64,000 nucleotides of DNA from Lichina pygmaea (taxonomy: Eukaryota; Ascomycota; Lichinomycetes; Lichinales; Lichinaceae): NCBI GenBank assembly GCA_963422465.1, contig OY730174.1, forward strand, positions 3,622,914 through 3,686,913. Reading direction: 5' to 3'. A program made the translations under genes and the position numbers. Below, piece by piece: positions 7,912 through 62,804 of this stretch (position 1 is its first letter; each line of letters opens with the position of its first letter). Below the pieces are notes generated by a model. It was given only the letters and a program-made list of their open reading frames with translations, searched no databases and had not been told where the DNA came from.

Positions 7912-8442
7912 GAATTTCTCAAATACATCATAGGGATTGAAGGGATCAAGATTAACCCTGAGAAGATCAAAGTGATTCAGCAATAGCTAACACTGACATC
8001 AGTTAAGGAAGTACAAACCTTCCTAGGATTTACCAACTTTAATCAACAGTTTATCAAGAACTACTCACAGATAGCAACACCACTGACAGAACTCACAAAG
8101 AAGAACATGGAGTACTGGTAGATGGAGAGATAACAAAAAGTATTCCAGCAGCTCAAGGACACTTACACCAAGGAACCAGTTCTCCTCAACTTCAAGACAG
8201 GCCAGCCAACACAAATTAAAACAGACACTTCAGACCAAGCAGTGGGAGCATGCCTATGCCAGCAAGCAGACAGCAAGTAGCACCCAGTTACCTACTAGTC
8301 ACGCAAAATATTATAAGTGGAACAAAACTATAATATCCATGACAAAGAGCTACTGGCAGTTGTCAACACACTTAAACATTAGAGAGTGTACATGGAAAGC
8401 AGTTCTGAACTTACTATTCTCACAGACTACAAGAATCTGACA
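7912..8442 (+). mobile_element. Gypsy-A pol fragment
   Basis: About 530 bp of Gypsy-A pol in plus orientation, from the end of the reverse transcriptase to RNase H (translation includes LGF-like, NYSQ, TDTSDQ and HDKELLAVV blocks). It aligns with about 58230-58760. No LTR is attached, and it is bounded on both sides by LINE 5' ends. Broken fossil fragment. Confidence 0.85.
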
Positions 8443-9072
8443 CAACTTCTCCCAGTACCACTACGTTCAAGGACCATCACTTCTGATATTCACCTGACTT
8501 TGTAAGAAGTTCTGGAAACAAAGCGAGTATCTGTTGGGAACCACCAAAACCTTAAGGTGAAAACCTATCACTTTGGGTAACCCAGCCTGTTTATCAAAAG
8601 TTGTGATCTCTGAATCTTTGATCTTCAACTTCAACAACCAACAGACTATCTATAACAAGGCAGAGAGTGGCCAGTGGGATTCTGAAAGACTGGGGACAGG
8701 CCCCAATTACCTAGGAACACTCAGTCTTGGGGTGTGGTCCCAGGATTGAGCAAGTACTCCCAGTCAGACAGAGATAACAGCTTGAACTTCTCTTAAGAGA
8801 AACATCTAGCATCAAGGAGATCAGGGCTCCCAGGATAAGAGAAATAGTTTAGAGCTTGCCTCTAGTGCTGGTAGAGTTGAAAAACTCTAGGAAAGCTCAG
8901 GCAGGGGGTGTGGTCTCCAGCTTGAGTTAATACAGCCAGATTTCCCTAGAGTCTAGTTGGAAAAGACTGCCCAGGAAAGTACAGTCTTGGGGAGTGGTCC
9001 CAGGATTGTGCAATTACTGCTAGGAACCAGGTGACCCTTTGTGAACAACCCACTGTGCAGGTTACCTACCCT
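8443..9072 (+). promoter_or_regulatory. LINE-b 5' UTR with degenerate monomers
   Basis: Three related modules at about 8711-8757, 8887-8932 and 8970-9018 share AGGAA, CAG, then GGGG(T/A)GTGGTC and CCAG. The architecture resembles the monomer promoters of some vertebrate and insect LINEs, but promoter function is inferred. Confidence 0.5.
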
Positions 9073-15523: not shown

Positions 15524-16096
15524 ATGAACCAAGACCAGACAACTCAAACTTGTTGTCACAGTTTTCTTTCTTGTTGTATTGGCAAAATAGGCAAGGAATC
15601 AAAAATCACATGCAGTGCTTGTTGTCATGACCACACCAAGTGTGTCGTGAGCTCCGCATCATCTTTTTGTCGTTGTTGTGTTGAGAAGGGTTGTTGCTGC
15701 AACCTTCATCTCTCAGAATCAGAATAGAAGAAGATGGAACTTGAGTGTGAGCAGCTCAAGGCTCAGCTGCGAGAGACTGATGACCAATTGTCAAAGTTAC
15801 TTCCCTAGCAGATCTGTCTTCACCAGCAGCTGGGTTGTCTCTCTCAGAAAGAGGCTGATGCCATCTGTCGTGAGCTGTCAGCCATCAAGGATCAAGAGTC
15901 TCTTGATGCTCAGGAGCAGAAGGCTCTCCATGTTATTCGTGAACGGGAGGCCAGTCAGGCTGCTGCTCCTCTGTTCTTTGAGGACATCTTCTCCTCAGAG
16001 ACTTTGGCTCCTCTCAAGCTGTTGTCACTGTCAGACCTGGTCACTGCGGGTTTGCTTGGTGGTAATCCACCAGCTTCTGGTTCATCGCAGGGCTGA
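15524..16096 (+). pseudogene. Gypsy-C antisense Zn2Cys6/coiled-coil gene
   Basis: Starts ATG 62 nt inside the LTR and reads opposite to gag-pol. Translation begins MNQDQTTQTCC and holds CSACCHDHTKC and, eight residues on, a second cysteine group, giving C-x2-C-x6-C-x8-C-x2-C-x6-C, the Zn2Cys6 spacing. A Leu/Glu/Gln-rich helix follows (QLKAQLRETDDQLSKL). The 3' end overlaps the chromodomain end. The copy has a few breaks; 62234-62804 is better preserved. Confidence 0.7.
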
Positions 16097-21502: not shown

Positions 21503-21938
21503 TGTTGCGGTCTGTACCGTACTGTCCTATCCGAGTATAGGATTAGGGCGAGAGGCGGAAGGCGGGTTGGTTCTCGCAGGAGAGGAGTGTCAAGGAGTGC
21601 GAAGGGGTTTGGTGGAACGTGGTGGTGGTGACACCTGATCAACGGCTTCGTACAAAAGGATTGTATTGAAGTAGATCTAGTTGTCTGGATCACAACATGA
21701 GTTGAAGACGATCATTCCATAGGGGAACTATCGCCTGGCTATATAGTGCCCAGTTCGTGAGCAGAGTGAGCTCTGCTCACTTTGCTCACTTTTCATGCAC
21801 GCTGCAGTGAGCAGGGTGAGCTCTGCTCACTTTGCTCACTTTTCATGCACGCTGCGGCGAGCTGGGTGAGCTCTGCTCACTTTGCTCACTTGTTCGTGCA
21901 TATGCATGCTGCGGCAAGCACCCCCTGGTTTGTCTCGC

Positions 21939-22089: not shown

Positions 22090-22590
22090 ATGCCTCCAAA
22101 GTCACGTGCGACTATTAGCCGAACTCAGCTGGCTGCTCAAATCCGCGATCGGGGTTTTGTTTCGCGTACACCCTGCGACTTTTGTGTTCTCCGTGGTCGT
22201 CCGTGCTTCCAGATGCTGGGAGAAGACGATAAGTTGAAATGTGCTGCGTGCACTCGGCGTGGAAGGTCTTGTGTCTCTGTGTCCTGGGAATCTTTGAACA
22301 TGTCCCGGGACAACCTCCGTGAGGATGTTGCCACTGACGAGGCAACACGTGATGCACTCTTTGAACAACTTGCCACAGTGCAGGCTTGTCTGTCTCGGAA
22401 GTGAAAGGTGTTGGAGGGCACCGAGGTCTGTACAAGGCAGAAGCTTCAGTGCTTGGTGAAAGAGATGGAGTCGGATGGCGAGGATTTGACTTGATCAGTC
22501 ATTGACGTGTCCCTCCTGCAGGCCGAGCTGTTCAGTCCTGCTCCTGCCGAAACTGTCGCAGAAGAAGCTGGCAGTTCGCGAGGTTCTTGA
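22090..22590 (+). pseudogene. Gypsy-A1 antisense Zn2Cys6/coiled-coil gene
   Basis: Opposite strand to gag-pol, 43 nt inside the 3' LTR. The N-terminal 105 codons are open: MPPKSRATISRTQLAAQI, then cysteines in the pattern C-x2-C-x6-C-x11-C-x2-C-x6-C, with CAACTRRGRSC closely resembling the second half of fungal Zn2Cys6 domains. A helical stretch with leucine heptads follows. The 3' end overlaps the chromodomain end tail to tail by about 60 bp. A few breaks in this copy. Confidence 0.75.
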
Positions 22591-37770: not shown

Positions 37771-38205
37771 TGATTAACAATACTGCTGTGCCAAGGCCAC
37801 TCCTCCCCTAGCAGATCCTCACATGTTAGCTGGAGACTGCTAGGAGGGTGATGTGACAAGAACTCCTCTTGACTACTCCAGAGGTGCTCTATCAGACACC
37901 TAGACTTCACATCCACCAGCTGTGGGGCTGGCTTCAGGCTGTAGTGTACACAGTAGTTGTCTGTCAGGTGGTTTTCATCTCCCAAGCTTGGTCGCAGTCC
38001 TGTTCTACTGTAGCTGTTTTACAGGGGTGTCCAGAGTGCCTGTGTGACACCTCCAGTGGCCTGTCACTCCACAACACCAGCAGCTTGACTGGTGACTTGA
38101 TTAGCTCTTGGTGCAGTGACTACAAGCAGCCTGGGAAGCCACCCGCCATCGACTGCCCCGAGGTTCCCAGCCTACACCACATGGAGGTTCAAGTTGTTGC
38201 AGGCC
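37771..38205. repeat. Direct repeat, copy 1
   Basis: About 435 bp from TGATTAACAATAC to GCAGGCC, repeated imperfectly at 38560-38967 (shared blocks include CCTAGACTTCACATCCACC and CGACACCTCC-like strings). No credible reading frame. Unclassified; a candidate non-autonomous element or LTR pair. 37641-37770 before it holds nothing I recognise. Confidence 0.65.
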
Positions 38206-38537
38206 ACAGAACAACCATAGTCCAAACAGAAGAACCTTTGGACTGGTTGCTCTGTTCAATCTGCTTGACCTGCTTGACCTGACCAAACAGAGTAGGTAGA
38301 GCAGTCAGAGCAAGCAGAGCACAATACCTCTCTGTGGAGAACCCCCTCTCCCAGAGACTTCTGTATATAAGAGCACCCAGACATCCGGGGAGAATAGCTC
38401 TCCAGGCTGAACAACATATAGTAACAACAATAGCAAGAGAGTTACCTATCTTGCTATTCATCTATTGAGTCCCTGTCCTCCTTACCCAGACATGTGGACC
38501 AACCACATTCTGTGTGAACATGGCCTGGCCCTTAACA
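38206..38537 (+). repeat. Diverged Gypsy-C-like LTR
   Basis: The right half matches the Gypsy-C LTR in sense orientation: TATATAAG (38364-38371), GAGAATAGCTCTCCAGGCTGA, ACAATAGC...GAGAGTTACC, TGAGTCCCTGTC and a final CCCTTAACA. The left half is unique. A solo LTR of a related but distinct family is the best reading; the left border and any target duplication are unclear. Confidence 0.6.
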
Positions 38538-38559
38538 CTAGAGTTCTCCCTAACACTTT

Positions 38560-38967
38560 TGATTAACAATACCACAGTGCAGATGTCGCTCCCCTTCTAG
38601 AACAAGATTCTTGACACATTAGCTGCTGGAGACTCTGCTAGAAGGGGGGTGTACGATGAGAACTCCTCTCAACTACTCCAGAGGTGTCCTGTCAGATGCC
38701 TAGACTTCACATCCACCAGCTGCAGAGCTGGTTTTCATCTCCCAGTTTTGGTCGCAGCCCTCTGTTCTGCTGACACTGCTTCACGGGAGTGTCCAGGGTG
38801 CCTGCGCGACACCTCCGGTGGCTTGTCGCTCCGCTAGTGCCAGCAGCTCGACTGGTGACTCAATTAGCTCTCAGTGCAACAACAGCAAGCAGCTTGGGAG
38901 ACTGCCTGCCATCGCTACCCCGAGGTTTCCAGCCTGCACCGTGTGGAGGTTTGAGTCGTCGCAGGCC
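38560..38967. repeat. Direct repeat, copy 2
   Basis: Second copy of 37771-38205, about 70-80% similar by eye. It lies 22 bp after the C-like LTR. Confidence 0.65.
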
Positions 38968-39327
38968 TGTCCAGAGTTATAGTCGTGTGTAGTTGATTTT
39001 GTCGAGAGGTGTTCATAGAGGTGTTGTGTTCATTGGGCTGACCAACACACCTCTGGGGGACGGGGTGTGGGGCACGGGTAGTGAGCCCTGATGACGTACA
39101 GTAATAAGTTTCATGATCGATGATCAGCAGGCCTGTCGAGCGTCTGAGAATAGAACAAGACTGCTGCGCCATAGAATGTGACGATGGATTCAGGTCGGAG
39201 GAGTGGCCTTCACCACCTCATCTGGCGGCCGAAACAGACCATCGTGGTGGTGTCTCCTTCAGATCCACTACGAGTATTTTGCGTACGTGCGAGTAATACA
39301 AGGAGGTACGTACAATACGGACATGAC

Positions 39328-39345
39328 TGTACGAGTACTCGTACA
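39328..39345. promoter_or_regulatory. 18-bp perfect palindrome upstream of the patatin-like gene
   Basis: TGTACGAGTACTCGTACA is fully self-complementary and lies about 220 bp before the start codon at 39562, amid further TACGTAC/GTACG strings. A dimeric factor site is possible. The rest of 38968-39561 shows no gene; it is promoter and unique spacer. Confidence 0.4.
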
Positions 39346-39561
39346 AGCTGTTTCTTGCGCCGCGCTAGGTTTCGGCGCATGCGCCTCAACTATCACCGGC
39401 ACGATGAATCAGCTGGTTCGATCTGGTCTCTGACACTGCCCCTGACAAACCTGTCAGCACCGGAGTGCATGTTGTTCTCCTCCTGTCCACTGGATTGCTT
39501 GTCGCGCAAACCGTCCACAAAACCTCCATACTTTGCGCCGTCGTTGCGCTGATCTCGCAAG

Positions 39562-41652
39562 ATGGAGGCCTCGCTCTTGCGTCGTAAAGATACTACCAAA
39601 GGCCCGCCACTCCGGATATTGTCCCTCGGTATGTGCCTCACTTCCCCGGGATGATCGAGTGGGCCAGAGGGCCCAAGCTGACTGGATCTCCATGCGCGCC
39701 CAGATGGCGGAGGTGTTCGGGGCTACTCGGTCTTGATCATCCTTCAAGAGATCATGTACAAGACCTACGTCGAGATGAAGGGCGAGGCACCACGGAGGGA
39801 ACAGATCCCGAAGCCGTGTGAGCACTTTGATCTCATCGCCGGCACCGGCACCGGCGGCTTGCTGGCCCTCATGCTGGGTCGGCTTCGAATGGACATCGAG
39901 ACGTGCAAGGAGGTGTACATCCGCATGACACGATACGTGTTCGAGACCGACAAGACCATCGCCGGCATTCCGTACCGCTCCACCCTGTTCAAGGCGTCCA
40001 AGCTGGAGGAGGCCATCCGACAGTGTGTTGCCGACCATACCATTCGTGATGCCGAGGGGAACGACGGGTCCGCCTCCCAGGCGTTGATGAGCCCACTGAG
40101 TCCGCGGTCCCCGGCGAGCGCCTACGGCGGCGCCGTCTCGCCACGGCGAACGTTGAGTCGTGCCAGCGTGGCGAGTAGCGGCATGAGCGGGCCCGGATAC
40201 CGCAATTCGGCTTACTTGCCCTCGCGACGAGGAAATCCAAACGCGCTGCTGTACGACTCGAGAGAGAACAGGACGAAGACGTAAGTGCCGGGTTGGATGC
40301 GAGCCCATCGATATCGTGATCGAAGAGTCGCGTGGACTGACGCCTTCAGCAGCGCCGTGACGGCGATATACAGAGGGACACCCAAGAACGGGCAACCCGT
40401 GCTCCTGCGGTCCTACGATTCCCGGCGGGAGCCTCCACCGGACTTCAACTGCACGATATGGCAAGCGGGCCGGGCGACCTGTGCCACGGGCTTGGCCTTC
40501 AAGCCCATTCAGATCGGTCAGTCCGTGTTCATCGACGAAGGTGCCGGAAAATACAACCCGTCACCGCAGGTACTCGATGAGGCGACGGTCAACGAATGGC
40601 CCGGCAGAGACGTTGGCACCTTCATCAGCATCGGAACGGGAAAGCGACCGCCTGGGACCAACATGCAGCAGCATCTGTGGTGGGAAGGCTTCGTGTCGAG
40701 CCCGATGGGCGACTTCGCCGAGGCGCGACGCCGGCTCATCTCGAAGATCGAAGGATGCGAGGAGACCCACGTCAACATGTGCCGGGAGCACCTGTCGAAG
40801 CGCGGCGTCAACGCGGAAAATTACTATCGCCTTAATGTCGAGGTCGGCGTCGGCGAGTTCGGCATGAATGAGTGGAACCGTCTGGTCGACATCAGCACCA
40901 ACACTCATCGCTACCTCGCGAGGACCGAGGTGCAGACACAGATCACGAGCGCGGCTACGAAGATGGCCAAGATCCACAACGCTCACATGAGACTCTCAGG
41001 CCGAGTGGCCGGCATGGAGTTTGAACCGGGCGACGACCAAAGGTTCCAGATCGCCCATCCACTCGCGGTTGAGTTGCCCGGAGCCGAGATCGATCTGCCA
41101 AGGGATTACAACCAGCCACAGCAGCCTTCGTTGATGACTCCGGCCTTCTCGTTCCAGCGACCCCAAGCCTCGGATCAAGATAAATACATAGTCGTATCCC
41201 CCAGCGGATCCGAGGCGCCCGAGGTGCTTTCTCAGACTCAGCCGCTGCCGCCACCGCCGCCGCCGCCGCCTCCACCACATTTCCCAGTGCCACCGGCAAG
41301 ACGATCTGGCGAACTTCCCCGCATCGGTGATGGCCGTCGCAGTAACGAGGCCTATTCGATGCCGCCTCGGTCGTCCATGGGGTCCCTAACGCCCTCGCCA
41401 CGACGAAGTTCCGAGCATCCCGACCCCGCGGCACCAGCTTCGTCTGTGTCGAACATTGTCCCACCTGTGCCTCCGAAGACGCCTCTCCCGTACCCAGACA
41501 ATGAAGCCGGCAGCGAGCGTCGGCCACAGCAACAACTCTCGCAGCCGCCGGCCCGGTTTACGAACGGTCGTGCGGGCCTGCCCTACCCAGATCTGGACGG
41601 ACCTCCACCGCCGATCAATCTCGCGAGGAAACCCGAGTACCGATCTTCTTGA
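39562..41652 (+). CDS. Patatin-like phospholipase domain protein
   Basis: Host gene, three exons by my reading: 39562-39628, 39704-40280, 40350-41652. Introns are 75 and 69 bp with GT...AG ends and CTGAC branch-like strings; the spliced frame is 648 codons. Splicing the first intron creates the oxyanion motif DGGGVRG (residues 23-29), which supports the model, and an in-frame TGA precedes ATG 39562. The nucleophile elbow reads GTGTGG (69-74), where lipases have GTSTGG, so Gly71 replaces the usual Ser. The second catalytic residue is kept (D277 in DEGAGKYNPS). A Ser/Pro-rich insert covers about 140-205, and the last ~200 residues are disordered and proline-rich, with ten consecutive prolines. 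Patatins cleave acyl chains from lipids, but this one may lack hydrolase activity. It converges with the NIPA gene. Confidence 0.85.
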
Positions 41653-42682
41653 GTGAGGGCGACCGTGCATTACAACCTAATGGTGCGACGAACAGACTCT
41701 TTCTTATCCCGACTTGTCATAGGCCTGCCTACTCCATCCTCTTGGCAGAGTACACCTTTTGTCCTCATCCCTTTGTGCTTGTCTTTGATTTCTCACTCCA
41801 TGGATGCCCAGACAACAGGTGGTAATGGTGACAACGACGACAACGACACAAGAAGTCCAAAGTCTTCTATAATAACGAGGGTACGTGGCGCGTGGTTCAA
41901 GGCGTTAGTGATTTTTGATGGGGTTGGCCAGTGCTAAGCCACAGGGATTGGGATGTTCTGCCTTGCTAATGTAGAGCCTCGTGTGGATATACCCTCTTTC
42001 TGCTACACTGCTGGAATCGATGTTGCTAGCCCTGCAGACCTAAGCTGACGGCGTTGTATTTCGAGAGAAAAATATGCCAAATATCTTCCTCTTGAACACC
42101 TCTGTGACTTAGGGAGAGGAATGCAACTTCACTGGAAGAGAGCTAGAAACAGGGATGTTGATGTATCCATCTTGTTCTGTGTCAGCTACACTACAAAGTC
42201 ATAAGTGTTCAACACATCAATGCTGAGACGACCATGGTCTAGAGAGAAAAATTCTCAGTTTGACATACACAGAAGGCAAGAGACTTGAGTCTGCAGATAT
42301 CGACAGGTAGGATAATCCTTGGAAGGATGCAAGTGGAATTCACCAACACCAGGCTGAACGGTTTTTGTAAGGGCAGGGCGCTGAATTCAGAGAAATGTGA
42401 ACAGATTGATGACAGATCCTCCTAATACAAATCTTGTCTATCGATGTAGTCTCTTTATACGTCCTTCTTCCAGGGTGGTTGCAATCACCTATATAGCCAA
42501 GGTAGGTATGTAACATAGGTGTGGGCTCAGCGGCTGACTGGCCGGGCTTGGTGATCTGGTTGCTAAATGACCATGACAGCCTTTGACAACACATATATTA
42601 GATCAAGCTTATCAAGAGGGTCATTGACCTAGGCTATACTAATATTTATTCGTGCAAGCGAAAAAGCCAAGTCGTAATTGTA
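41653..42682. other. Intergenic region between convergent host genes
   Basis: About 1 kb containing the two 3' ends. Short open frames (for example 41653-41937) have no recognisable similarity and probably do not code. No repeat shared with the rest of the window was noticed. Confidence 0.6.
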
Positions 42683-45382
42683 TCAGATGAACGCTCCTTT
42701 GCTCTGAGGGTAGCCCCCTACATCTCCTGATGGGCCTCCTCCATCGCCTTGTCGACCTCCGTGCCAACCTCGGCCTGAGCCACCAGTCCGGCTGTCGTGC
42801 TCTCTGGACAGCAGTTCTCCGGGCTTCTCCTCATTGTTGTCATCGCTCTCCTCTGCGTCCTCGTCTTCGGCATTGCTGCTGTGTTTAGGTGTCGATGTGG
42901 TGGTCACAGTCGACGAGGATGACGACATCAAGGATGATGAAGGTGTGTGGAACTTGTCTTTACCTTGTCTATCTTGCTGCGGTAGAGGTGGGTCGTAGTA
43001 GTACCGGCTATCATCGTCGTGGAAAGCGCCACACTTCTCCCGGCTGTCGACTTCTTTGTTCGAGGCTCGGCCTCCTTGAAGATTGTCTGAATCATCCGAT
43101 GTGGATGAGTGTGGCGGTGAGGGAGAACAGACCACTGCGGGCCTGATTGTCGATGATAGAGCTTTCTCTTGCATCCAATTACGCTCTCGGTCGTGCTCGT
43201 CCGACTCATCATCCGAAGCATAGTCGGGCAGATGTAGTTTGCTAGACGAGTCGCCTTTGACAAGACCTACTCTCTCCTCTTCTGTGGCAGCCTTCAAGCT
43301 CGCAGCGTCTTTGTGACTGCTCTGTCGCGAACCTAGGCCGAGCCTAGATCGTGGCCGTGATCGATCGTCATGACGGCTGGAATCGCCATCAGCAGCACCA
43401 TCGAGTGTCTGTGGTCGGTCATCCCTTGGTCGATGGAAGATATTCTGAAACGAGAACTTCCGTTTCGCCGTATGCGGGGGCGGCGGTGGCGGCGGCGGTG
43501 AGGATGACCTGGGCACATCGCTGAGCTCGACTCTGACGTCTGGGGCCCATCGCAGCGATGCGCCTCTTGAGCGCCCTGACAAGTCGTCGCTCAAGGATGA
43601 TGCCGGCGGCGGTGGTGCAGCTAGCCCTCGGTATCTGCCGTCTGGTCCGGGCGAGGTCGTCGACCAGTTTCGGCCGGAACGGTCCGCTCCATCAACATAT
43701 GGCGGGAAATCCGAGACGCCGTCACTTCGTGTCGATGGCGGAACGGGCATCTCGGTAAGCGCGACCGGGTGACCAGTTTCCTCAGCCATCGGCCGGCCTT
43801 GATCAGGTCCCTGTGGCGGCCCCTTCCGCCAAATGCTTGGGGCCCGGCTTCGGATGAAATTGAGCAACCTATGCACGCCCGCTTCCTCGCCGACGCGGCC
43901 GCTCCCATCGCGGTTGTCGTTCTCGATGTGCGGCGGGATATGGCTCATGCCAAGTGGCGGGCGGACGGTTCTGGGACGGTGCACGCTACCGGAGGTGGCC
44001 GACCGGCTTGATATCGTACGTCTCCTCCTGATACCATCCCATTCATACTGCTCCCCTTCTCGAACAGGCTCCAGATCCCGCATGCGCTCCTCCTGCAGCC
44101 GCCTAGCCTCTTCGACCTCCATCTTCTGCCGCGAGACGGAGAACCTTCGGATGATCGCGGCCGTTCCTCGAATTGCGTCGGCCTTTGGCTCCGTCTCAGG
44201 CTGCTCCTGCTGCGCTACCGTGCGCACCTGGTCTAGGTCGCCCGTAAAGACAGCTGTATCTGGTACATCCTTAGCTGACTTTGACAGCTGTAATAAGATG
44301 ACGCCAGCACAGATCTGTAGAAAGCCCATCACGAGACTGGACATCTTTAGCGGTCTCGTCCAATTCAAAGCACTGACAGCGACATTCGGAAGAATCGAGA
44401 CTTACGTGATGATTGCTGTCGGCTTGCCCTTGAAACCTCGGAAAAGGATAGCAGACGTCATAATAGTACAGCTAGTGAAGTAGACGTAGTACGTTGGCGT
44501 GACAAGAGCGGCATTGTAGATATTCAATGCTTTCTGTGCGCTCGAAAAGTTATCAGTCTCGGATGCTGCTCTCTCTGCGACAAGCCGGTGGTGTGCGCTC
44601 ACATTCAGATAGATGATCTCCACCAGTAGTGTGGCGATGACAAACACCAACAAAACGTACAGAAACCACTGGTTAAATTGAGGTGTGCCCGACGCCTGGG
44701 TGACGATGGCTGCGCCCAGGCCCTGAGTCGCGACGACGCTCAAGCCACCGGTCCAGCTGCAGACGGTCAGATAGACCATCATCGTCTTCTTCCCATAGCG
44801 GGGCCCGGCCCAGATGGCGACAAAGGCACAGCCGACAATAACAATGCCGGCGTAGGAAAGAAAGCCAGGTGCGATGACGAAGTCCTTCATCTGTTGGATC
44901 GTCGCAGCGGATGACTGCTCGGGCGCGTTGATGGCGATGACCACGGAACCGATGATGCAAACGAAGCACCCGACTTTGCCGACGAAGCTCAATCGTTCCT
45001 TGAGGAAGATGGCTGAGAGGATGGTGGTCACAACAACGGCAAGCGCGCCTAACGGAGTGACCAGAATCGCGTCGACAAAAGCGTAGGCAGCGAAATTACA
45101 GATCTCGCCGATGACCATCAAGATCATGCCTAGCCACCAATAAAGATTCTTCAGGTACCCGTAGCCTTCGCCGGCTTCCTCATTGTACTTGACATTTGCC
45201 CTGAGCAAGCCCACCTTCTTTAGAACGAATGACGTTCCGATGAACAAGCCCGACGCGATGGCCAAGCAAAGGCCAACAACTTTGTAGACTGGTGGACGCG
45301 ATGCATGGTCCGGATTCGAAGCCCCTCCGGCACGGGGATACAGCGCATGCGCCTCAGCAGCTCCATCCAACCAGGACTGCAT
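42683..45382 (-). CDS. NIPA-type magnesium transporter (DUF803 family)
   Basis: Host gene, two exons: 45382-44406 and 44336-42683, with a 69-bp intron (44405-44337, GTAAGT...CAG) joining ...PTAIIT to LVMGFLQICAG in frame; 876 codons. The N-terminal ~350 residues hold about eight or nine hydrophobic helices, with family blocks FIGTSFVLKKVGL, YLKNLYWWLG, GEICNFAAYAF, LVTPLGALAVV and SAIFLKERL, as in NIPA/DUF803 proteins, which transport Mg2+ across plasma or endosomal membranes. After LSKSAKDVPDTAVF comes a ~500-residue hydrophilic tail, rich in Ser, Arg and Pro, with a KFSFQNIFHR motif, typical of filamentous-fungal members. ATG 45382 is the first Met before the membrane domain. Higher GC than the flanking repeats. 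Transport substrate is family knowledge, not shown here. Confidence 0.88.
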
Positions 45383-45704
45383 CTTGACCGACGAAAATGT
45401 CTGTCTGCAAGGCGAGTTTGGGGTCGTCAGTCAAGAAGGCCCACCACTGTCAAGTTGGTAGTTCCAGCGACGTGGATTGTTAGCACTTCCAGGTTGCGTG
45501 AATTGAAGGATCATCAAGTCTTCGTCTATCAGATGATCACAGACTGGAGAACACACAGCAGAAGATGCCGGTTTGCAGTCCAAAAGTAGCACAGCTGTTA
45601 TAGCTTTTAGTATTCTGCTATAGCGATAACATGTACAAAAAAAAGAGTGATAGTGTATGAGTAGGAGTGGTCAAACTTCATCTCAGAGTGTTGACTTTTT
45701 TTAG
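45383..45704. other. Upstream region of the NIPA gene
   Basis: About 320 bp between the transporter start and the LINE-e fragment; probable promoter. Contains A-rich runs near 45636. No distinct element recognised, so the repeat boundary sits close to this gene. Confidence 0.5.
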
Positions 45705-46038
45705 AAGTATTCACCTAGACTAGAGACTAGACTCTCTATCTAGACTTTCCTTGAGTCAAGGACTCTGCTAGCTCCAGAGTCACTCAGACTCTAACTATTC
45801 CTCTTATCCTAAGACTCTCTCTCTCTGGTTGTAGATGGATTACTGGTTGTTGAGGAAGAAGATCATAGATCCCAGAATCACAACTTTTGACAAACAGGTG
45901 TGATCCTCAAAGGTGATGGGCTTTCACCTTAAGGTTTGGGTAGGTTGAGACAGAATGTCAGCTGTTTTCCAGAATATATGACAAATTCCAGTGTTTGCCA
46001 AAAGTGATAGTTCTTGAACAGCGTGGTTCTGGGAAGAG
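45705..46038 (-). mobile_element. LINE-e 5' UTR fragment
   Basis: Aligns with 21173-21502 over its whole length, from the CACCTAGACTAGAGAC block to the LINE 5' end (inverted) at AGAGTTG. The coding part is missing on the left. A dead relic. Confidence 0.8.
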
Positions 46039-47692: not shown

Positions 47693-48186
47693 TGTTGCGG
47701 TCTGTACTGTACCGTCCTATCCGAGTATAGGATTAGGGCGAGAGGTGGAAGGCGGGTTGGTTCTCGCAGGAGAGGAGTGTCAAGGAGTGTGAAGGGGTTT
47801 GGTAGAACATGGTGGTGGTGACACCTGATCAACAGCTTCGTACAAAGGATTGTATTGAAGTAGATCTAGTTGTCTGGATCACAACATGAGTTGAAGATGA
47901 TCATTCCATAAGGGAACTATCACCGGACTATATAGTGCTGGCCTGTGGAGACAATCAAGATTGTCTTGACAGTCTCGACATCAAGATGGGTGAGATTGTC
48001 TTGATGCTTCATGCATCCTGTGTCGAGACTCCCGTGTGTGTCTCAACAGTCACGTGACCCCTTGTTGGTTGGTCACTTGACTTCCATGGTGTCCTCTTGC
48101 CTGGCCTGACTTCCATGGTGTCCTCTTGCCTGGCCCGCGGCCTGATTGCCTATAAATAAGTGGCTCCCATCCCCTGGGTCGTAACA
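47693..48186 (-). repeat. Gypsy-A2 3' LTR (494 bp)
   Basis: TGTTGCGG to CGTAACA. Identical in layout to A1 up to the TATATAGTGC box, then a different block with GATTGTCTTGA and CATGCATCC motifs, a CACGTG core, and a duplicated 28-bp CTTCCATGGTGTCC unit. Confidence 0.94.
48151..48158 (+). promoter_or_regulatory. Antisense-facing TATA box in Gypsy-A2 LTR
   Basis: TATAAATA, 73-80 bp before the antisense ATG (48231). The surrounding U3 is unrelated to that of A1, yet the box is in the same place. Confidence 0.55.
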
Positions 48187-48230
48187 CTACCCTCCTCTCC
48201 TTCATTCATTGTCCTGATGAATTCTTGAGT

Positions 48231-48731
48231 ATGTCTGCAAAATCACGTGCCTCTGCTTACCGAAACCAACTGGCAGCCCAGATCTGTGATCATAACTTTG
48301 TGTCACTTGCTCCGTGTGACTTCTGTGTTTTGAACCACAAGCCCTGCTTCCGAATGTCTGACGACAACGATAAGTTGAAGTGCGCTGAATGCACTTATCA
48401 TGGGAAGTCCTGTGTGTCACTTTCTTGGGAGTTGCTGAACATGACTCAGGATAACCTTCACAAGGATTTGGCTGTTGATGAGGCCAAGCGGGATGCTCTT
48501 GTTGAGCAGCTTGCCAAGCTGCAGGCTTGTGTGTCCCAAAAGCGAAAGGTTCTTGAGGGTGCTGAGGGTCGAGCAAAGAAGAAGCTCCAGTGCCTTGTTG
48601 CTGAAATAGAGGTGGATGGTGAAGACTTGTCGGCGATAGTCATTGACACATCCGCGCTGCAGGCTGAGCTGTTCAGTCCTGCTTCTGCCGGAACTGCTGC
48701 AGGAGGAGCTGGCAGTTCGCGAGGTTCCTGA
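48231..48731 (+). CDS. Gypsy-A2 antisense gene: Zn2Cys6 zinc cluster plus coiled coil
   Basis: Open 166-codon frame on the strand opposite to gag-pol, starting 45 nt inside the 3' LTR; ATG 48231 is chosen because the only upstream in-frame start is a TTG. Residues about 25-60 carry six cysteines spaced C-x2-C-x6-C-x11-C-x2-C-x6-C (CDFC, KPC, CAEC, GKSC), matching the Zn2Cys6 consensus. Residues about 65-125 are Leu/Lys/Glu/Gln-rich heptads (LVEQLAKLQACVSQKRKVL), consistent with a dimerising coiled coil as in Gal4-type factors. The C-terminus is acidic, then Ala/Gly-rich. The end overlaps the chromodomain end of pol tail to tail by 59 bp. Expected to be nuclear and DNA-binding if made. I do not know a named family; a retroelement regulator is inference. 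Confidence 0.78.
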   Translation: MSAKSRASAYRNQLAAQICDHNFVSLAPCDFCVLNHKPCFRMSDDNDKLKCAECTYHGKSCVSLSWELLNMTQDNLHKDLAVDEAKRDALVEQLAKLQACVSQKRKVLEGAEGRAKKKLQCLVAEIEVDGEDLSAIVIDTSALQAELFSPASAGTAAGGAGSSRGS

Positions 48732-51700
48732 GTGGCTCCCAGGTATTTTCCGAGTCTGGGTAGTTTTTCCACTTGACAAGGTATTGCTGATCTTTTCTCT
48801 TCAGGATCTGTTCAGCCTCAAATTCCTGTTCTTTCTCTGGTTGGTAATGAAATGTTTCCTGCAAGGGTGTGCTCTGGTCAGCTAATTTAGTCATTGAGAT
48901 GTGAAAGTTTGGGTGTACCTGAGCGTCTCTTGGTAGTCGCAGTCTGATGTTGACTGGTCCAGTTTTTTCTTCGACTGAAAATAGTCTGACCTTAACATAG
49001 TCCAGTTTCTTTGTTCTTGGTTTCTTTGTTCTCCAATTTCTTGTGAGGAGGTAGACTTTATCCCCCTTCTTTAGCTGAGGTGCCATTTTCAATTTCTTGT
49101 CTATTTGATGTTGCATTCTTTCTGAGGTGTCTTGAAGGTAGTGCCTCATCATTGTGTGTGTTTGTCGTAGGAGCTTGTCGTGTTGGAGTGCTTTCTCCGT
49201 GTCTGGTGAAGCTCTGCTTGGCATCCTGATGTTTGCATGTTGTCCAAAATTGGCAAAAAATAGTGATTCCTTTGTTGAGTCTGATCTGTGCTGGTTGATT
49301 GCCAGCTGTGCCACCGGTAATAACTGTACCCAATTGCTGTGGGTCTTGTTGATGTAATGCCGTAAGTAAGTCTCCAGGACTTGGTTCACTCGCTCTGTCT
49401 GGCTGTCAGTTCGTGGGTGATAGACTGTAGACATTTTGGGTTTTGTTCCCATGGCTGCACTGATTGTCTTCCAGTAGTTGGATGTGAAGAGTTTATCTCT
49501 GTCTGTAATGATCATGATTGGAACTCCGTGGTCTCTGACCAATCTGTCCAGTAAGAGGTGTCCCAACTGTTCTGCTGTGTGGGTCTCCTTGAATAGTACC
49601 ACTATTAGATATTTTGTGAATCTGTCCACTATCACTATAATCAAGTCGTAGGTGATTCCTGTGACTGGGTCTTTGGACTTGGGTAGCTTTATGATGAAGT
49701 CCATTGACACGTCTTCCCACAGGCCTCTCGGTATTGTGTTCGGGTGTCCTTCTCCGTATGGCTTATGTCTTCCATGTTTGTTTTTCTGGCATAGTAGACA
49801 CTTGCTGATGTAGTTTGTGACATGTTGTCAGAGGTTAATGACATTGTTCCCTGCCTGTTGGATAAGGTCTGTGGTCTTGGAGATTCCTGGGTGACTATGT
49901 GCTGGATTATCATGGTAGTTCCTTATTAGTTCTTCAGTGTCTTCTGCCGTGAGCTTGTTGATCTGTGGTTGAGGCACCAGGTTTCCTTGCTGGTCCTGCT
50001 GTAAGATTGTTCCTTGGCGTTCATCATCTTCCATGTGGTCTTTTCATCAGCTTAGTACGTCTGCTCTCCTATTGTCTTGTCCAGGGGTGTACAAGATCTT
50101 GAACTTGTGTTGCCCTAGGAGTTCAGCCTATCTGACTTGCTGTCTGTTCAGCTTCTTGGTTGTCGTGAATGTTGTCAGATTCTTGTGGTCTGTGAGAATG
50201 GTGAGTTCAGAACTACTTTCCGTGTACACTCTCCAGTGTTCGAGTGCGTTGACAACTGCCAGTAGCTCTTTATCGTGGATATCATAGTTTTGTTCTGCTT
50301 GTGTCATTTTTCGTGAGTAGTAGGCAACTGGGTACCACTTGCTGTCTGCCTGTTGGCATAGACATACTCCCACTACCTGATCTGAAGCGTCTGTCTTGAT
50401 TTGTGTCAGTTGGCCTGTCTTGAAGTTGAGAAGAACTGGTTCCTTGGCACAAGTGTCCTTGAGCTGTTGGAATGCTTTTTGTTGTCTCTCCGTCCACCAG
50501 TACTCCACATCCTTCTTTGTGAGTTCTGTCAGTGGTGTTGCTATCTGTGAGTAGTTCTTGATGAACTGTCAGTTGAAGTTGGCAAATCCTAGGAAGGCTT
50601 GTACTTCCTTAACTGATATCAGTGTTGGCCATTGCTGAATCACTTTGATTTTCTCAGGGTCAATCTTGATCCCTTCGATCCCTATGATGTATCTGAGGAA
50701 TTCAACTTCCGGTTTGTTGAACTCGCATTTCTTTAGGTTGAGCTTGAGCCCTGCCTCTTGTAGGCATCGTAGAACATCCTTCACATGTTTGGTATGTTCT
50801 TGTTGCGTGTTCGAGTAGACAAGAATGTTGTCCAGGTAGGCGATAGCTGTTTGGTCCAGGTGTGCTCTGATGATGTTGTTGATCAATGCTTGACATGTTG
50901 CTGGTGCGTTTGTGAGTCTGAATGGCATAACCAGATACTTGTAGTGTCTGTATCGGGTTCTGAAGGCTGTCTTCTATTCTTCTCCTTCTTTCATGTGTAT
51001 CAGGTTGTATGCTCCTTTCAAGTCCAGCTTGGTAAAGATTGTAGCTTGGCTGATCCTGTCTCGCAATTTGTTCGCATTTGGCAATGGATATCAGTTCTTG
51101 ATGGTAATGTCGTTGAGTTTCCTGTAATCCACACAAAGTTGAAGACTTCTGTCTTTCTTTGGTGCAAATAGTATTGGGTATCCTGCTGGTGATTGAGATT
51201 CTTGAATGAAACTCTTTTTCAGGTTTTCCTCCAGGTACTCGCGAAGTACTTGGAGCTCTTTCTCTGATAACTGGTAAATTGGTCCAAATCCTGGCTCCAT
51301 CCCTGGTTGCAACTTGATCTCATGATCCCAAGATTGGTGCTTAGGCAACACTGCTGTTGTTGTCTCTTCCTGAAAGAGGTTATCATACCCAGGTCAGTAC
51401 TCTTCAGGGATCTCCAGAGGGTTAACAACTTCCTCTCTCTTCATCTCTGACTGTTTGGCCACCTGGTTCCGGGGTGTGCCTGTCAAGGTGGACCTCTTCT
51501 CTTGAGAGTTGTCCTTTCTATCAGTGAGGTTCCACTGAGAACTCCTTCCCTCATCTGTCCACACCTTCTGCGGCTGGTAACAGGTCTGAGCTGTGTTGTT
51601 AGTGCAGTTCCTAAACATGAGTACTCCTGTCTTCCAGTTAACAACTGGGTTGTGCTTCTTTAGCCAAGGCATCCCCAAATAGATATTCTGAGTGGCCAAC

Positions 51701-51972
51701 TCGACAATATCAAGGTGGATCCTTTCAGCATGGTGTCCGGTAACTATTTCCATTGGCTGCGTCTCATGGCAGACTAGCTCTGTCTGTCCATTTGCCATCG
51801 TGAGCTGATAGGGCTGCTGCTTGCGTCTCCTTCCAGTGCTGAGGGTGTCGTAAAGTTGTCTTGAAATGTAGTTTCCACTGGCTCCAGAGTCAACAAGTGC
51901 ATATGTCTGTACTGGCGTGTTGGCGTGTAGTGACACAGGCAATCGCAGGTGCTTTGTGTTGCTAGGGGTCAT
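48673..51972 (-). pseudogene. pol: Gypsy-A2 pol region
   Basis: Protease (VDSGASGNY near 51890), reverse transcriptase (about 50570-51350), RNase H (about 50130-50500) and an integrase-chromodomain part still readable over 345 codons (MDFIIKLPKS to [17 protein letters not shown]). Same architecture as A1. Broken. Confidence 0.9.
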
Positions 51973-52009
51973 GTTGTTGAGCTCCCGATGTCACCCCTTG
52001 ACAAGGGAG

Positions 52010-53510
52010 TTCAGTCTTTTCCTGATTGAAGTGTCTTTCCACTGACTGGGCAATAGGTCCAGCCATTCCCATCAGTCCTGAGGAATCTGTTCATGAATTT
52101 GTCTTGCTGATGCTTGTCACATCCAGGCTTGAGGCAGTACTGCCAATTGTTGACGTAGCAGTTGTGGTTGTTGCCTTACTGTAGGAACATGAGGTGTTTG
52201 TGCCAATCATGTGTGTGCCTGGGGAATGCAGTGTGTTGGTGTTTGTCCCAAAGATGGATCTCACACGCATCCTTCTTGCAATTGACCCAATGCTTATGGC
52301 AGGTGGCGTGGTAGGGTGAATGTCCTCTGTACCTTCGTAGTTGTTCGTGGTAGGTGCAGTAGTGCTTCGTGCAAAACCTCCACTGTAGTTCGCTGTGCTG
52401 TAGATTTCGTGGGTCCATGCTGTAAGCATAGCTTCCTTGTAGTATTTCTTCTTTGATAGACGCGGGTTCGTCTTGGTCCCCATCAGAGGTGGTTAAGGGC
52501 TCCTGTCCCTTGTCCTGACCTGTCAGTTCTGGTAGGTCCTTGCCTCCTGATGTTGCCAGTTGGTGGGCTGCTTCCAATATCTGATCGTAGTTGTCCTATT
52601 GTTCAAGGGATAGCTGAGCCTCTCCTGGTGGGTCCTCTGGCTTGATGACATTCCAGTCTCTGTCGAGCGTATTAAGTTGCTGTCAGTGCACCTTGTTCTT
52701 TGAACGACAGTCTTTCGCTATGTGGCCTAGCTTGCCACAGGCATAGCACTTCAGTGCTTTCCCCTTTTTGTTGTTCCTTCCCTTCGTGAACCTTCCCTTG
52801 TGGTGGACTGCATCCAGTTCCATGGGTGCATAGCCATATGGGTCATGTGGCGGTGCCTTGTTAGGCAGCTTGTAGTGGTTGCTCACATGCCATGCGGGGT
52901 GGCTGTATCCTCTGTTGTGGTGTTTCTCCATCGCTCACTCGAATAGTTTGTCATCGATGTTGATTGCTTGTGTGATGAGTTCGTCCAGTGTGTTGACCGC
53001 TTGTCTGTTGAAGGTGATTTCATCCTTCACGTTTTCCTTGAGTCCACGTCAGTACATGACCATCAGGGCGTCGTTGTCCCAGTCAGTCAGTACTGAGTAT
53101 TGTTTGAACTGCGTGGTGTACTCTGCGGCTGAGTGTTGTTGTTTGATGTGCTGGATCATTCGTATAGCCACTTTGTCTTTGTTAGATAGTCCAAGGATCC
53201 TTTTGATCTTGTCCTTGAATCACGTCCATTTCATCATCCATTCTGTTGTGCTGTTGTGGTCTCTGTTTCCTGAGAGGTGTTTGTTGACGTAGGGCTTGAT
53301 CCATCAATAAGCATTGCCTCTCATGTAAGTGGTTGCAAAGAGGGGCCACTTTTCCTTAGGCAGCTTCGTCTCTGGTTGGAATTGAAAGTAGACTTGGAGT
53401 TGCATGAGCCAGTCGTCAACCTTGTTTCTTTCACTGTAGAACAGGTCTGGCTTGGCAACACTAATCTTTCCATCTGGGAAGTTGGGGTTGGTTGCTCCTG
53501 AGGTACTCAT
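52010..53510 (-). pseudogene. gag: Gypsy-A2 gag region
   Basis: MSTSGATNPN start at 53510, zinc knuckle CYACGKLGHIAKDC near 52710-52750, then the Cys/His-rich tail (about 52030-52440). In this copy the spacer and Cys/His tail are readable together from about 52577 downward. Broken elsewhere. Confidence 0.86.
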
Positions 53511-53528
53511 CCTTGAGGGTCTTCAAAG

Positions 53529-54022
53529 TGTTGCAGTCTGTACCGTACTGTCCTATCCGAGTATAGGATTAGGGCGAGAGGTGGAAGGCAGGTTGGTTCT
53601 TGCAGGAGAGGAGTGTCAAGGAGTGCAAAGGGGTTTGGTGGAACATGGTGGTGGTGACACCTGATCAACGGCTTTGTACAAAGGATTGTATTGAAGTAGA
53701 TCTAGTTGTCTGGATCACAACATAAGTTGAAGACGATTGTTCCATAAGGGAACTATCGCCAGACTATATAGTGCTGGCCTGTCAAGACAATCAAGATTGT
53801 CTTGACAGTCTCGACGTCAAGACAGGTGAGATTGTCTCGATGCTTCATGCATCCTGTGTCAAGACTCCCGTGTGTGTCTCGACAGTCACGTGACCCCTTG
53901 TTGGTTGGTCACTTGACTTCCATGGTGTCCTCTTGCCTGGCCTGACTTCCATGGTGTCCTCTTGCCTGGCCCGCGGCCTGATTGCCTATAAATGAGTGGC
54001 TCCCATCCCCTGGGTCGTAACA
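53529..54022 (-). repeat. Gypsy-A2 5' LTR (494 bp)
   Basis: TGTTGCAG to CGTAACA, same length as the partner. The 2-nt spacer and GTCTTCAA primer-site arrangement of A1 is kept at 53519-53526. Confidence 0.94.
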
Positions 54023-54803
54023 CCAGACAGCTACCAGAGCAAACAGTAGGACAATTTGTGGTGTACTTAGACTACCTGGCTGAAGACCTCCCACCAAAAC
54101 CAGACAAAATACAGAGAATCAACCTGCAGCTCTGAATGTGAAAGAAGTTAAAGGATGTTAACTTTACTTATCTGGAACAACCACACACCCAAGCCCAGCT
54201 GATCACACTAGTGTCAAAAATTGAAGACTGAACCACAAAGAAGTGTGGCTATAAAGAAGACAGCAAGGGTAAGAACAGTAAGAAGTTGTTATATACTGGG
54301 AGTGGGAAGGACAGAGACTGGAAGAAGTAGAAGCTGAACCAGAAGAACAACAGCCAGAAGAAGCTTAGTCCAGAGAAGAAAGAACAGTGATTCCAACAGA
54401 AACTCTGCTTCAAATATACCTCACCTGATCACTAAGCAACTGACTGCCCAGAGAAGTAGAAGTGCAACAAGAAGCTCTGAAAGAACACCAACCTGGTGGC
54501 TGTGATAGCTGGGTGTGCCAAGGATTCAGTGCACTCAATAGTGATCACAATAACCACCTTGGGTGAACAAGACTCAGTGATAATAACTATGTTGGTGGAC
54601 TCTGGGGTGGAGGACAATTTCATTTTACAATATGTAGTCAAGGAACTGGACTTGGTTTCTTATAGATACACTAGAGTGTGGACTCTGGACAGCCACAAGA
54701 TAGCCATGTACAGTAACTATACTGTAAGGTCCTGTCACAATAACTACTTACAATAGCCCACATCTGGCAGTCCTGCATCTGTTGATCACATGATGCAGCT
54801 CTA
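54023..54803 (+). pseudogene. Gypsy-D gag end and protease
   Basis: Resumes D after the A2 insertion. Gag C-terminus with knuckle-like cysteines near 54410-54470, then a protease-like frame (54496-54756) with the active-site string LVDSGVEDNFI. The sequence stops at the next Gypsy-A2 LTR. Confidence 0.65.
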
Positions 54804-59900: not shown

Positions 59901-60258
59901 ACGAAGAAACCAAGAACAAAGAAACTGGACCATGTTAAGGTCGGACTATTTTCAGTCGAAGAAAAAACTGGACCAGTCAACGTCAGACTGCGACTACCGA
60001 GAGACGCTCAGGTACACCCAAAACTTTCACATCTCAATGATCGAATTAGCCGACCAGAGCACACCCTTGCAGGAAACATTTTATTACCAACCAGAGGAAG
60101 AATAGGAATTCAAGGCTGAACAGATCCTGAAGAGAAAAGGTCAGTGATACCTTGTCAAGTGGAAAAACTACCCAGACTCGGAAAATACCTGGGAGCCACT
60201 CAGGAACCTTGCGAACTGCCAGCTCCTTCTGCAGCAGTTCTGGCAGAAGCAGGACTGA
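56958..60258 (+). pseudogene. pol: Gypsy-A2 second copy, pol region
   Basis: Protease readable over 192 codons (MTPSNTKHLRLP, VDSGASGNY), then reverse transcriptase, RNase H, an integrase stretch readable over about 300 codons (MDFITKLPKS, YHPRTDSQTER) and a chromodomain near 60130-60230. Broken. Confidence 0.9.
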
Positions 60259-60700
60259 ACAGCTCAGCCTGCAGCACAGACGTGTCAATGACTGTCGCCG
60301 ACAAGTCTTCACCATCCACCTCCATTTCAGCAACAAGGCACTGGAGCTTCTTCTTTACTCAACCCTCAGCACCCTCAAGAACCTTTCACTTTCAGGACAC
60401 ACAAGCCTGCAGCTCGGCAAGCTGCTCAACAAGAGCATCCCGCTTGGCCTCATCAACAGCCAAATCCTCACAAAGGTTATCCCAAGTCATGTTCAGCGAC
60501 TCCCAAGAAAGTGACACACAGGACTTCCCACGACAAGTGCATTCAGCGTACTTCAACTTATTGTTGTTGTCAGACATTCGGAAGCAGGGCTTGTGGTTCA
60601 AAACACAGAAGTCACACAGAGCAAGTGACACAAAGTTATGATCACAGATCTGGGCTGCCAGTTGGTTTCAGTAAGCAGAGGCACGTGATTTTGCAGACAT
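60200..60700 (-). pseudogene. Gypsy-A2 second copy, antisense Zn2Cys6 gene
   Basis: Counterpart of 48231-48731 on the minus strand (element is plus). The cysteine cluster and helix are recognisable at 60392-60631. A few breaks. Confidence 0.72.
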
Positions 60701-62233: not shown

Positions 62234-62804
62234 ATGAACCAAAGCCAGACAACTCGAACTTGTTGTTGTGGTTTTCTCTTGTTGTATTGGCAAAATAGGC
62301 AAGGAATCAAAAATCACATGCGGTGCTTGTCATCGTGACCACGCCAAGTGTGTCATGAGTTCTGCATCATCTTTTTGTTGTCGGTGCATCAAGAAGGGTT
62401 GTCGCTGCGACCTTCATCTCTCGGAATCAGAATGGAAGAAGATGGAACTTGAGCGCAAGCAGCTCAAGGCTCAGCTGCGGGAGACTGATAACCAATTGTC
62501 AAAGTTGCTTCCCCAGCAGATCTGCCTCCACCGGCAGCTGGGTCATCTCTCACAGAAGAAGGCTGATGCCATCTGTCGTGAGCTGTCAGCCATCAAGGAT
62601 CAAGAGTCTCTTGATGCTCAGGAACAAGAGGCCCTCTGTGTTATCCGCGAACAGGAGGCCTGTCAGGCTGCTGCTCTGCCGTCCTTTGAGGACGTCTTCT
62701 CTTCAGAGACTTTGGCTTCTCTCAAGCTGTTGTCTCTGTCAGACCTGGTCGCTGCGGGTTTGCTTGGTGGTAATCCACCAGCTTCTGGTTCATCGCAGAG
62801 CTGA
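62234..62804 (+). pseudogene. Gypsy-C antisense Zn2Cys6/coiled-coil gene, best C copy
   Basis: Opposite to gag-pol. Readable without interruption for 178 codons from 62268 to 62804. The cysteines CGAC, AKC, CCRC and the following group fit C-x2-C-x6-C-x8-C-x2-C-x6-C, with CIKKGCRC like the second half of Zn2Cys6 domains. The helix that follows (ELERKQLKAQLRETDNQLSKL) has clear leucine heptads and a long Glu/Gln-rich tail. Its sequence is otherwise unlike the A-family protein, so the shared position and motif are the link. About one break at the start. Confidence 0.72.

What the first reader, a model, noticed from the sequence alone, without database searches (positions are those of the whole stretch)
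48231..48731. Antisense Zn2Cys6 gene carried by a Gypsy retrotransposon
Seen: an open 166-codon frame opposite to gag-pol, between the chromodomain and the 3' LTR, with six cysteines spaced C-x2-C-x6-C-x11-C-x2-C-x6-C, followed by leucine heptads. Known: this spacing is the fungal binuclear zinc cluster of Gal4-type regulators (Pfam Zn_clus), normally followed by a dimerising coiled coil. Inference: the element has taken up a transcription-factor-like gene that may control LTR activity or counter silencing. Counterparts exist in every A and C copy whose 3' end is in the window.
Basis: partly seen in the sequence, partly recalled or inferred. Interest (0 to 1): 0.88.

Follow-up and report, generated by a model that had tools for sequence, protein, structure and literature searches.

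The report
Swappable antisense regulator gene in retrotransposon
Families of fungal jumping genes carry, written backwards next to their own switch region, a small protein-coding gene that looks like a DNA-binding regulator, and gene and switch seem to pass between elements as one cassette.

Summary
The frame is real: 48231-48731 (+), 166 codons, opposite to a chromovirus gag-pol, six cysteines spaced as stated, then a long coiled coil. It is a gene: A- and C-type copies differ in it mostly at third codon positions (26/19/63), dN/dS is 0.11 in this frame and 1.2-1.9 in four of five others, and relatives exist elsewhere. The cysteine domain is zinc-cluster-like but below the Pfam Zn_clus cut-off; profile support is modest, so membership is not established. 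The surprise: in 40 A and 40 C copies, 750 sites of pol show no fixed difference, and R/U5 hardly any, yet from the chromodomain end through the antisense gene to the end of U3 (47939-48931) the two types are deeply diverged or unalignable. Gene type and U3 type agree in 80 of 80. Both U3 types carry an antisense TATA about 80 bases before the ATG and the palindrome GTCACGTGAC, four with one changed base in A, one in C. Best reading: an LTR-driven self-regulator that travels with its control region, like a phage immunity cassette. Antisense genes at this place are known (brtn, Grande, Retand); transcription and binding were not testable here.

The parts
48231..48731 (+). Antisense gene, 166 codons, A type (window copy open)
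48315..48413 (+). Six-cysteine, zinc-cluster-like domain
   Evidence: pattern; profile comparisons
48426..48614 (+). Coiled-coil helix, residues 66-128
   Evidence: AlphaFold2
48615..48728 (+). C-terminal tail with acidic stretch (possible activation region, inferred)
   Evidence: sequence; no test
48151..48158 (+). Antisense TATAAATA inside the 3' LTR, candidate promoter
   Evidence: TATAWA at -78 to -83 in 40 of 40 A copies and at -77/-75 in 40 of 40 C copies
48049..48058 (.). Palindrome GTCACGTGAC in U3
   Evidence: core found in 40 of 40 A and 40 of 40 C copies, one base step allowed
47939..48187 (-). U3 part of the 3' LTR that belongs to the cassette
   Evidence: abrupt A/C boundary at 47938/47939; type matches gene type in 80 of 80 copies
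47693..47938 (-). R/U5 part of the 3' LTR, nearly shared by A and C
47929..47934 (-). TATATA, candidate TATA of the sense promoter, just outside the cassette (inferred)
   Evidence: sequence; a TWTATA in that stretch in 32 of 40 A and 35 of 40 C copies
48682..48813 (-). Chromodomain of pol, inside the cassette
   Evidence: Pfam PF00385; differences up to 48931
47939..48931 (.). Exchanged cassette: U3, antisense gene, chromodomain end of pol
53529..54023 (-). 5' LTR of the element
60200..60700 (-). Counterpart in the second A copy, decayed
22090..22590 (+). Counterpart in the C copy, decayed
62238..62804 (+). B-family counterpart, open frame with six-cysteine domain at 62319-62408
15611..15700 (+). 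Six-cysteine domain of another B copy, frame decayed

Best explanation
The element carries an antisense accessory gene. Shown: it is protein coding and under purifying selection; it has a six-cysteine domain followed by a coiled coil; gene type always goes with one U3 type; the cassette U3-gene-chromodomain end has been exchanged between elements whose pol and R/U5 form one pool. Inferred: its RNA starts from the TATA box inside the 3' LTR; the product is a small dimeric, zinc-cluster-like DNA-binding protein; it binds sites in the U3 it travels with and sets the activity of the sense promoter of the 5' LTR and of its own antisense promoter. I lean to an activator because of the acidic tail, with an HBZ-like repressor close behind. 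As gene and target are neighbours in the RNA, one template switch in pol during reverse transcription moves both together, and strand transfer puts the new U3 into both LTRs.
For: Codon-position excess 26/19/63 and dN/dS 0.11; 80 of 80 genes without indel (copies were chosen by similarity); gene type = U3 type in 40 of 40 A and 40 of 40 C; 0 of 750 fixed differences in pol against 108 of 442 in the gene; sharp limits at 48931 and 47938/47939; mosaic copies; antisense TATA in 80 of 80 and palindrome core in 80 of 80 although the U3 types do not align; Zn_clus profile match of both A and B domains at 72% and 69% probability, 3 of 150 cysteine-preserving shuffles as high in each; coiled coil.
Against: No Pfam Zn_clus score over cut-off. 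With the first, narrower alignments the Zn_clus probability was only 16% (A) and 6% (B) and DUF3716 scored higher than Zn_clus for A (40%). The basic loop of Gal4-type proteins is missing in A. AlphaFold2 gives no confident cysteine domain. Linkage of gene and U3 is expected from nearness alone. 35 of 40 C genes hold stops, one stop being shared by 33 of 40, so C elements may spread without an intact product. B copies: the frame test does not separate frames and no antisense TATAWA was found in the one B stretch examined. No transcript or binding data.
Confidence: 0.5

Rival explanations
1. Protein-coding accessory gene, but not a transcription regulator: the cysteine domain binds RNA, Gag or chromatin and the protein helps nuclear entry, packaging or target choice, perhaps with the chromodomain that sits in the same cassette.
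For: Zn_clus score below cut-off; missing basic loop in A; chromodomain end of pol lies inside the cassette.
Against: Linkage of gene and U3 type, conserved antisense TATA and palindrome in otherwise unalignable U3s, profile match to Zn_clus in two diverged families.
Confidence: 0.27
2. A Gal4-type host transcription factor captured by the element.
For: Spacing of the cysteines and domain order; GAL4 chains are the only PDB matches confined to the cysteine domain, at E 1.4 and 3.1.
Against: Below the Pfam cut-off; 27 Zn_clus matches in the genome do not include the antisense genes; old and widespread in the elements, so any capture is not recent; GAL4 not found with the A1 or B profiles.
Confidence: 0.13
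3. The antisense RNA, not the protein, matters (double-stranded RNA or transcription interference).
For: Antisense promoter-like TATA in 80 of 80 copies; many copies have stops.
Against: Third-position excess and dN/dS 0.11 in this frame; protein conserved in relatives.
Confidence: 0.07
4. Chance open frame on the back of the element.
For: Overlapping or opposite frames are often open.
Against: 442 of 501 bases do not overlap pol; selection, indel-free copies and relatives; pattern 4 against 0.03 expected.
Confidence: 0.02

Closest known systems
brtn, antisense gene of Boty-like Gypsy elements of Botrytis cinerea (Zhao et al. 2011, Virology 417:248)
   [quoted passage not shown]).
   Different: No cassette exchange is mentioned in those passages.
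Antisense ORFs of plant elements: Grande gene23, RIRE2, Retand TRP28 genes
   Same: Same place and orientation, in most copies, with suggested nuclear or DNA-binding role; Retand also has tandem repeats nearby (passages).
   Different: Other protein families (TRP28 and others); not fungal.
HBZ of HTLV-1
   Same: Antisense gene driven from the 3' LTR whose product has a DNA-binding/coiled-coil (bZIP) build and regulates the virus (partly recalled; named in passages).
   Different: bZIP and not cysteine cluster; no common descent implied.
Zn2Cys6 regulators (Gal4 type, Pfam Zn_clus)
   Same: Six-cysteine spacing followed by coiled coil; weak profile match.
   Different: Below the family cut-off, no basic loop in A, no further domain, 166 residues only.
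DUF3716 (PF12511), fungal cysteine domain
   Same: Similar six-cysteine make-up; scored better than Zn_clus with the first A alignment.
   Different: With the wider alignment and the domain alone 9% (A) and 1% (B) against 72% and 69% for Zn_clus.
Immunity regions of lambdoid phages
   Same: Regulator and control region exchanged as one block between otherwise shared genomes (working analogy, recalled).
   Different: No binding or immunity shown here; transfer would be by template switching.

Membership tests
Zn2Cys6 / Pfam Zn_clus PF00172 | Six cysteines in two C-x2-C-x6-C halves | tested here: met
   A; B
Zn2Cys6 / Pfam Zn_clus PF00172 | Score over the curated Pfam cut-off (21 bits) | tested here: not met
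   window protein no match; 6 of 20 proteins of A1 match, best E 0.13; of 9 proteins the best is P0085 with 14.2 bits
Zn2Cys6 / Pfam Zn_clus PF00172 | Profile similarity beyond the cysteines | tested here: inconclusive
   hhalign probability 16% and 6%, 34% and 37% with wider alignments, 72% and 69% for the domain alone, 3 of 150 shuffles as high in each case
Zn2Cys6 / Pfam Zn_clus PF00172 | Basic loop between second and third cysteine (CRxRKxKC) | tested here: not met
   A: CVLNHKPC, C: CVLRGRPC; B nearer with CRRDHAKC
Zn2Cys6 / Pfam Zn_clus PF00172 | Coiled coil after the cluster | tested here: met
   helix 66-128
Zn2Cys6 / Pfam Zn_clus PF00172 | Binds two zinc ions and DNA | not testable with these tools
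   needs protein
Antisense accessory ORF between pol and 3' LTR (aORF-3R) | Position and orientation | tested here: met
Antisense accessory ORF between pol and 3' LTR (aORF-3R) | Present across copies and conserved as protein | tested here: met
Antisense accessory ORF between pol and 3' LTR (aORF-3R) | Transcribed from an antisense promoter | not testable with these tools
   only a conserved TATA
brtn of Boty-like elements | Sequence homology to BRTN | not tested
   sequence not available; paper not held
Ty3/Gypsy chromovirus | Protease, RNase H, integrase, chromodomain in pol, LTRs | tested here: met
Phage-immunity-like specificity cassette (analogy) | Regulator and control region exchanged together | tested here: met
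   exchange at least once, several times likely but a single C clade not rejected
Phage-immunity-like specificity cassette (analogy) | Type-specific action of the regulator | not testable with these tools
   needs binding or reporter data

The most novel reading that the evidence does not exclude
LTR retrotransposons of this fungus evolve like lambdoid phages: a pool of mixed gag-pol carries alternative specificity cassettes, each made of an antisense DNA-binding regulator and the U3 it recognises. Elements of one type regulate their own kind and not the other, so a new cassette lets an element escape the control that resident copies impose, and diverged cassettes are kept side by side.
Probability: 0.25. 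Interest if true: 0.87.

Novelty: new variant of a known kind. Interest (0 to 1): 0.62.

Why it matters
Antisense genes near the 3' LTR have been noted in plant and fungal elements; the review and the Retand paper of which I saw passages call their function unknown. Here there is measured purifying selection, a candidate DNA-binding domain, a candidate promoter, and two natural alternative cassettes in one genome. That makes the old question of what such genes do directly testable: does each protein act on its own U3 and not on the other? If yes, a retrotransposon has a regulator-operator system with type specificity.

Tried and rejected
Pfam and NCBIfam: no significant family for the product. 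Several unrelated families gave better E-values than Zn_clus (zf-PHD-like 0.0018, Apolipoprotein 0.002, ADIP 0.0036, DDE_Tnp_ISL3 0.011); those whose scores were shown lie below their cut-offs, and most lie on the coiled coil. NCBIfam gave nothing near cut-off for three proteins. PDB sequence search: mainly coiled coils; GAL4 only with profile A5, not with A1 or the B profile A6. AlphaFold2 of both families: coil confident in A, cysteine domains too poor, so no fold search was run. IMG/VR scan: 65 pattern matches, none confirmed. Gal4-type CGG half-sites in U3: C has CGG-N8-CCG around the palindrome in 20 of 40 copies, A has no such pair there, so no Zn2Cys6-type site is claimed. The tandem repeat of U3 as binding array: real in C (3-6 cores per LTR) but in A the 29-bp duplication is in 1 of 40 copies only. 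One C clade on the pol tree is not rejected; 2 of 80 rows (L025, L091) were dropped there because they made very long branches. B-family selection test does not separate frames. Papers: searches found 0 papers that join zinc cluster or Zn2Cys6 with antisense and retrotransposon terms; listings seen, none fits by title or start of abstract apart from those cited; passages searched in PMC3248453, PMC4427930 and PMC2864245 hold no 'antisense'. Most subscription papers are not in that library.

Full report
What is there. The finding sits in a Ty3/Gypsy chromovirus on the minus strand with LTRs 47693-48187 and 53529-54023; Pfam finds protease, RNase H, integrase core, SH3_Tf2-1 and Chromo domains in three open frames tested. 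On the plus strand an ATG at 48231 opens 166 codons up to a stop at 48731. Pol ends at 48673, so the last 59 bases overlap tail to tail and 442 bases are free of pol. In the whole window the six-cysteine pattern occurs four times in six frames, against a mean of 0.03 in shuffles; all four sites are this gene or its counterparts in families A, C and B.

It is a gene. Searches list 150 A-type protein matches (150 of 511 candidates scored), 40 C-type DNA matches (40 of 481) and 150 B-type protein matches (150 of 275). I fetched 40 of the 150 A places, spread over the list, and all 40 listed C places. All 80 genes are exactly 501 bases long; matches were chosen by similarity, which favours this. 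Twenty-four of 40 A and 5 of 40 C genes are free of stops; 89 of 92 stops are TGA, of a CpG-decay kind, and one stop is shared by 33 of 40 C copies. Between A and C, sites with at least 80% majority in each type differ at 108 of 442 positions: 26, 19 and 63 at codon positions 1, 2 and 3 (chi-square p 1.6e-7). Over 24 x 5 stop-free pairs dN is 0.21 and dS 1.99 (near saturation), ratio 0.11; the other frames give 1.42, 1.54, 1.88, 1.18 and, for the mirror frame that shares the wobble position, 0.21. Within types the ratio is 0.36 (A-A) and 0.51 (C-C), as expected for decaying copies. For seven B copies, five of them stop-free, the ratio is 0.34, but two other frames give 0.37 and 0.42, so that test is neutral. 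Outside this genome's window 54 proteins match (437 candidates), 133 with a wider profile (8000 candidates scored, 120 listed) and 75 for B (8000 scored); the only name given is a Watsoniomyces obsoletus MAG. Some relatives of 193 residues have, in frame before the methionine, a leader (R-N-T) consistent with the same LTR end, which suggests that there too the gene abuts an LTR (inference).

What the protein looks like. A-type: short N-terminus, six-cysteine domain, one long helix predicted with high confidence, acidic tail. B-type has the same order, with a C-x2-C-x6-C-x8-C-x2-C-x6-C domain. A and B profiles align over 102 columns through cysteine domain and coil (E 0.0016 for this single comparison, probability 16%). 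The window protein has no Zn_clus match in Pfam. Of 20 proteins in A1, 6 match Zn_clus, best E 0.13, while some unrelated families score better though below cut-off; the best Zn_clus score seen is 14.2 bits for P0085, cut-off 21. Profile comparison with 12 Zn_clus domains of the same genome aligns all six cysteines: 16% (A) and 6% (B) with the first alignments, 34% and 37% with wider ones, 72% and 69% for the domains alone, where 3 of 150 shuffles that keep the cysteine columns score as high in each case. DUF3716 did better than Zn_clus in the first A comparison (40%) but not for the domains alone (9% and 1%). The only PDB matches confined to the cysteine domain are two GAL4 chains at E 1.4 and 3.1; they are absent with two other profiles. 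AlphaFold2 gives low confidence there. Verdict: zinc-cluster-like, membership not established.

The cassette. A and C elements do not differ evenly. From 48961 to 49710 in pol there is no fixed difference in 750 sites, and distances within and between types are alike over 49011-50220 (0.065 and 0.068); 6 of 1239 columns differ in frequency by more than 0.4. The last clear difference on the pol side is at 48931. From there through the chromodomain end (28 of 285 sites), the gene (108 of 442) and U3 (not alignable) the types are separate. At 47938/47939 this ends abruptly, and R/U5 is nearly shared (0.044 and 0.051), with one near-fixed difference at 47911. U3 type and gene type agree in 80 of 80 copies; the C stretch L091 also holds an A-type LTR match more than 1 kb from its own, in a neighbouring piece. 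flags five mosaics: one A copy (L055) that is C-like from 48728 on, that is from the last codons of the antisense gene into pol, and four C copies with an A-like patch at 48913-48928 or to 48931; a sixth (C) copy shows the same patch with one undetermined site. So there are at least three breakpoint places, all at or beyond the pol-side end of the gene; only sites from 48590 on were typed this way. The pol tree of 78 rows needs 6 type changes (5-7 in bootstraps, 4 forced by starred branches), but a single C clade is not rejected (AU p 0.137), and types cluster by nearest neighbour in pol (76-88% same type) and in R/U5 (91%; permutation p 0.001). Exchange is thus clear at least once and likely several times. 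The simple mechanism, from established retroelement biology, is one template switch in pol during minus-strand synthesis: gene and U3 then come from the other RNA, and strand transfer puts the new U3 into both LTRs.

Control signals. Both U3 types, though unalignable, have TATAWA on the antisense strand 75-83 bases before the ATG in 40 of 40 A and 40 of 40 C copies (background 0.14 per 150 bases). The palindrome GTCACGTGAC is intact about 150 bases before the ATG in 36 of 40 A and 39 of 40 C copies, and its core with one changed base is in the other five (background 0.002 per 340 bases). C has 50-bp repeats in varying number (3-6 cores); the 29-bp duplication of the window's A copy is in 1 of 40 A copies; a B LTR has a 35-bp array. 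A TATATA in the sense direction lies at 47929-47934, just outside the cassette. U3 thus looks like a two-way control region between two TATA boxes. The one B stretch examined has no antisense TATAWA.

How it most likely works. Shown: coding, selection, domain order, cassette, linkage. Inferred: transcription from the 3' LTR, zinc and DNA binding, U3 as target, sign of control. The acidic tail (also in B) makes me lean to activation, with an HBZ-like repressor as near alternative. Linkage alone does not prove function, because gene and U3 are neighbours.

Prior work. [quoted passage not shown] 2011, seen only through passages in PMC7264820, PMC8365987, PMC4227169 and PMC5987419), and Grande, RIRE2 and Retand in plants (passages of PMC7264820 and PMC11963269). 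[quoted passage not shown] I found no paper that joins zinc clusters with such genes in a library that lacks most subscription journals. I therefore rate it a new variant of a known kind.

Noticed in passing
window 47693-54023 and other copies: CpG observed/expected is 0.34-0.52 in the A element (LTR, gag-pol, antisense gene) against 0.92 in the genic stretch 38000-46000, and stops in the copies are mostly TGA: points to CpG-directed decay of repeats, not classical CpA-type RIP.
   Followed up: partly
C-type copies (L059-L098): One stop near the end of the antisense gene is shared by 33 of 40 C copies: C elements may have spread with a product lacking its acidic tail, or the site decays easily.
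   Followed up: partly
window 7607-8780: A stretch 88% identical to pol parts of A and C elements (7912-8442) lies between inverted repeats 7622-7847 and 8539-8764, 98% complementary: looks like a piece of pol inside another repeat.
   Followed up: no
G000 matches (L099-L103): DUF3716 has 9 matches in the genome, 4 of them with stops inside: some may be decayed mobile genes, so DUF3716 and these antisense genes deserve a joint look.
   Followed up: no
window 21757-21900, C-type U3: 50-bp tandem repeat with inner 9-bp repeats, copy number varying between copies.
   Followed up: partly
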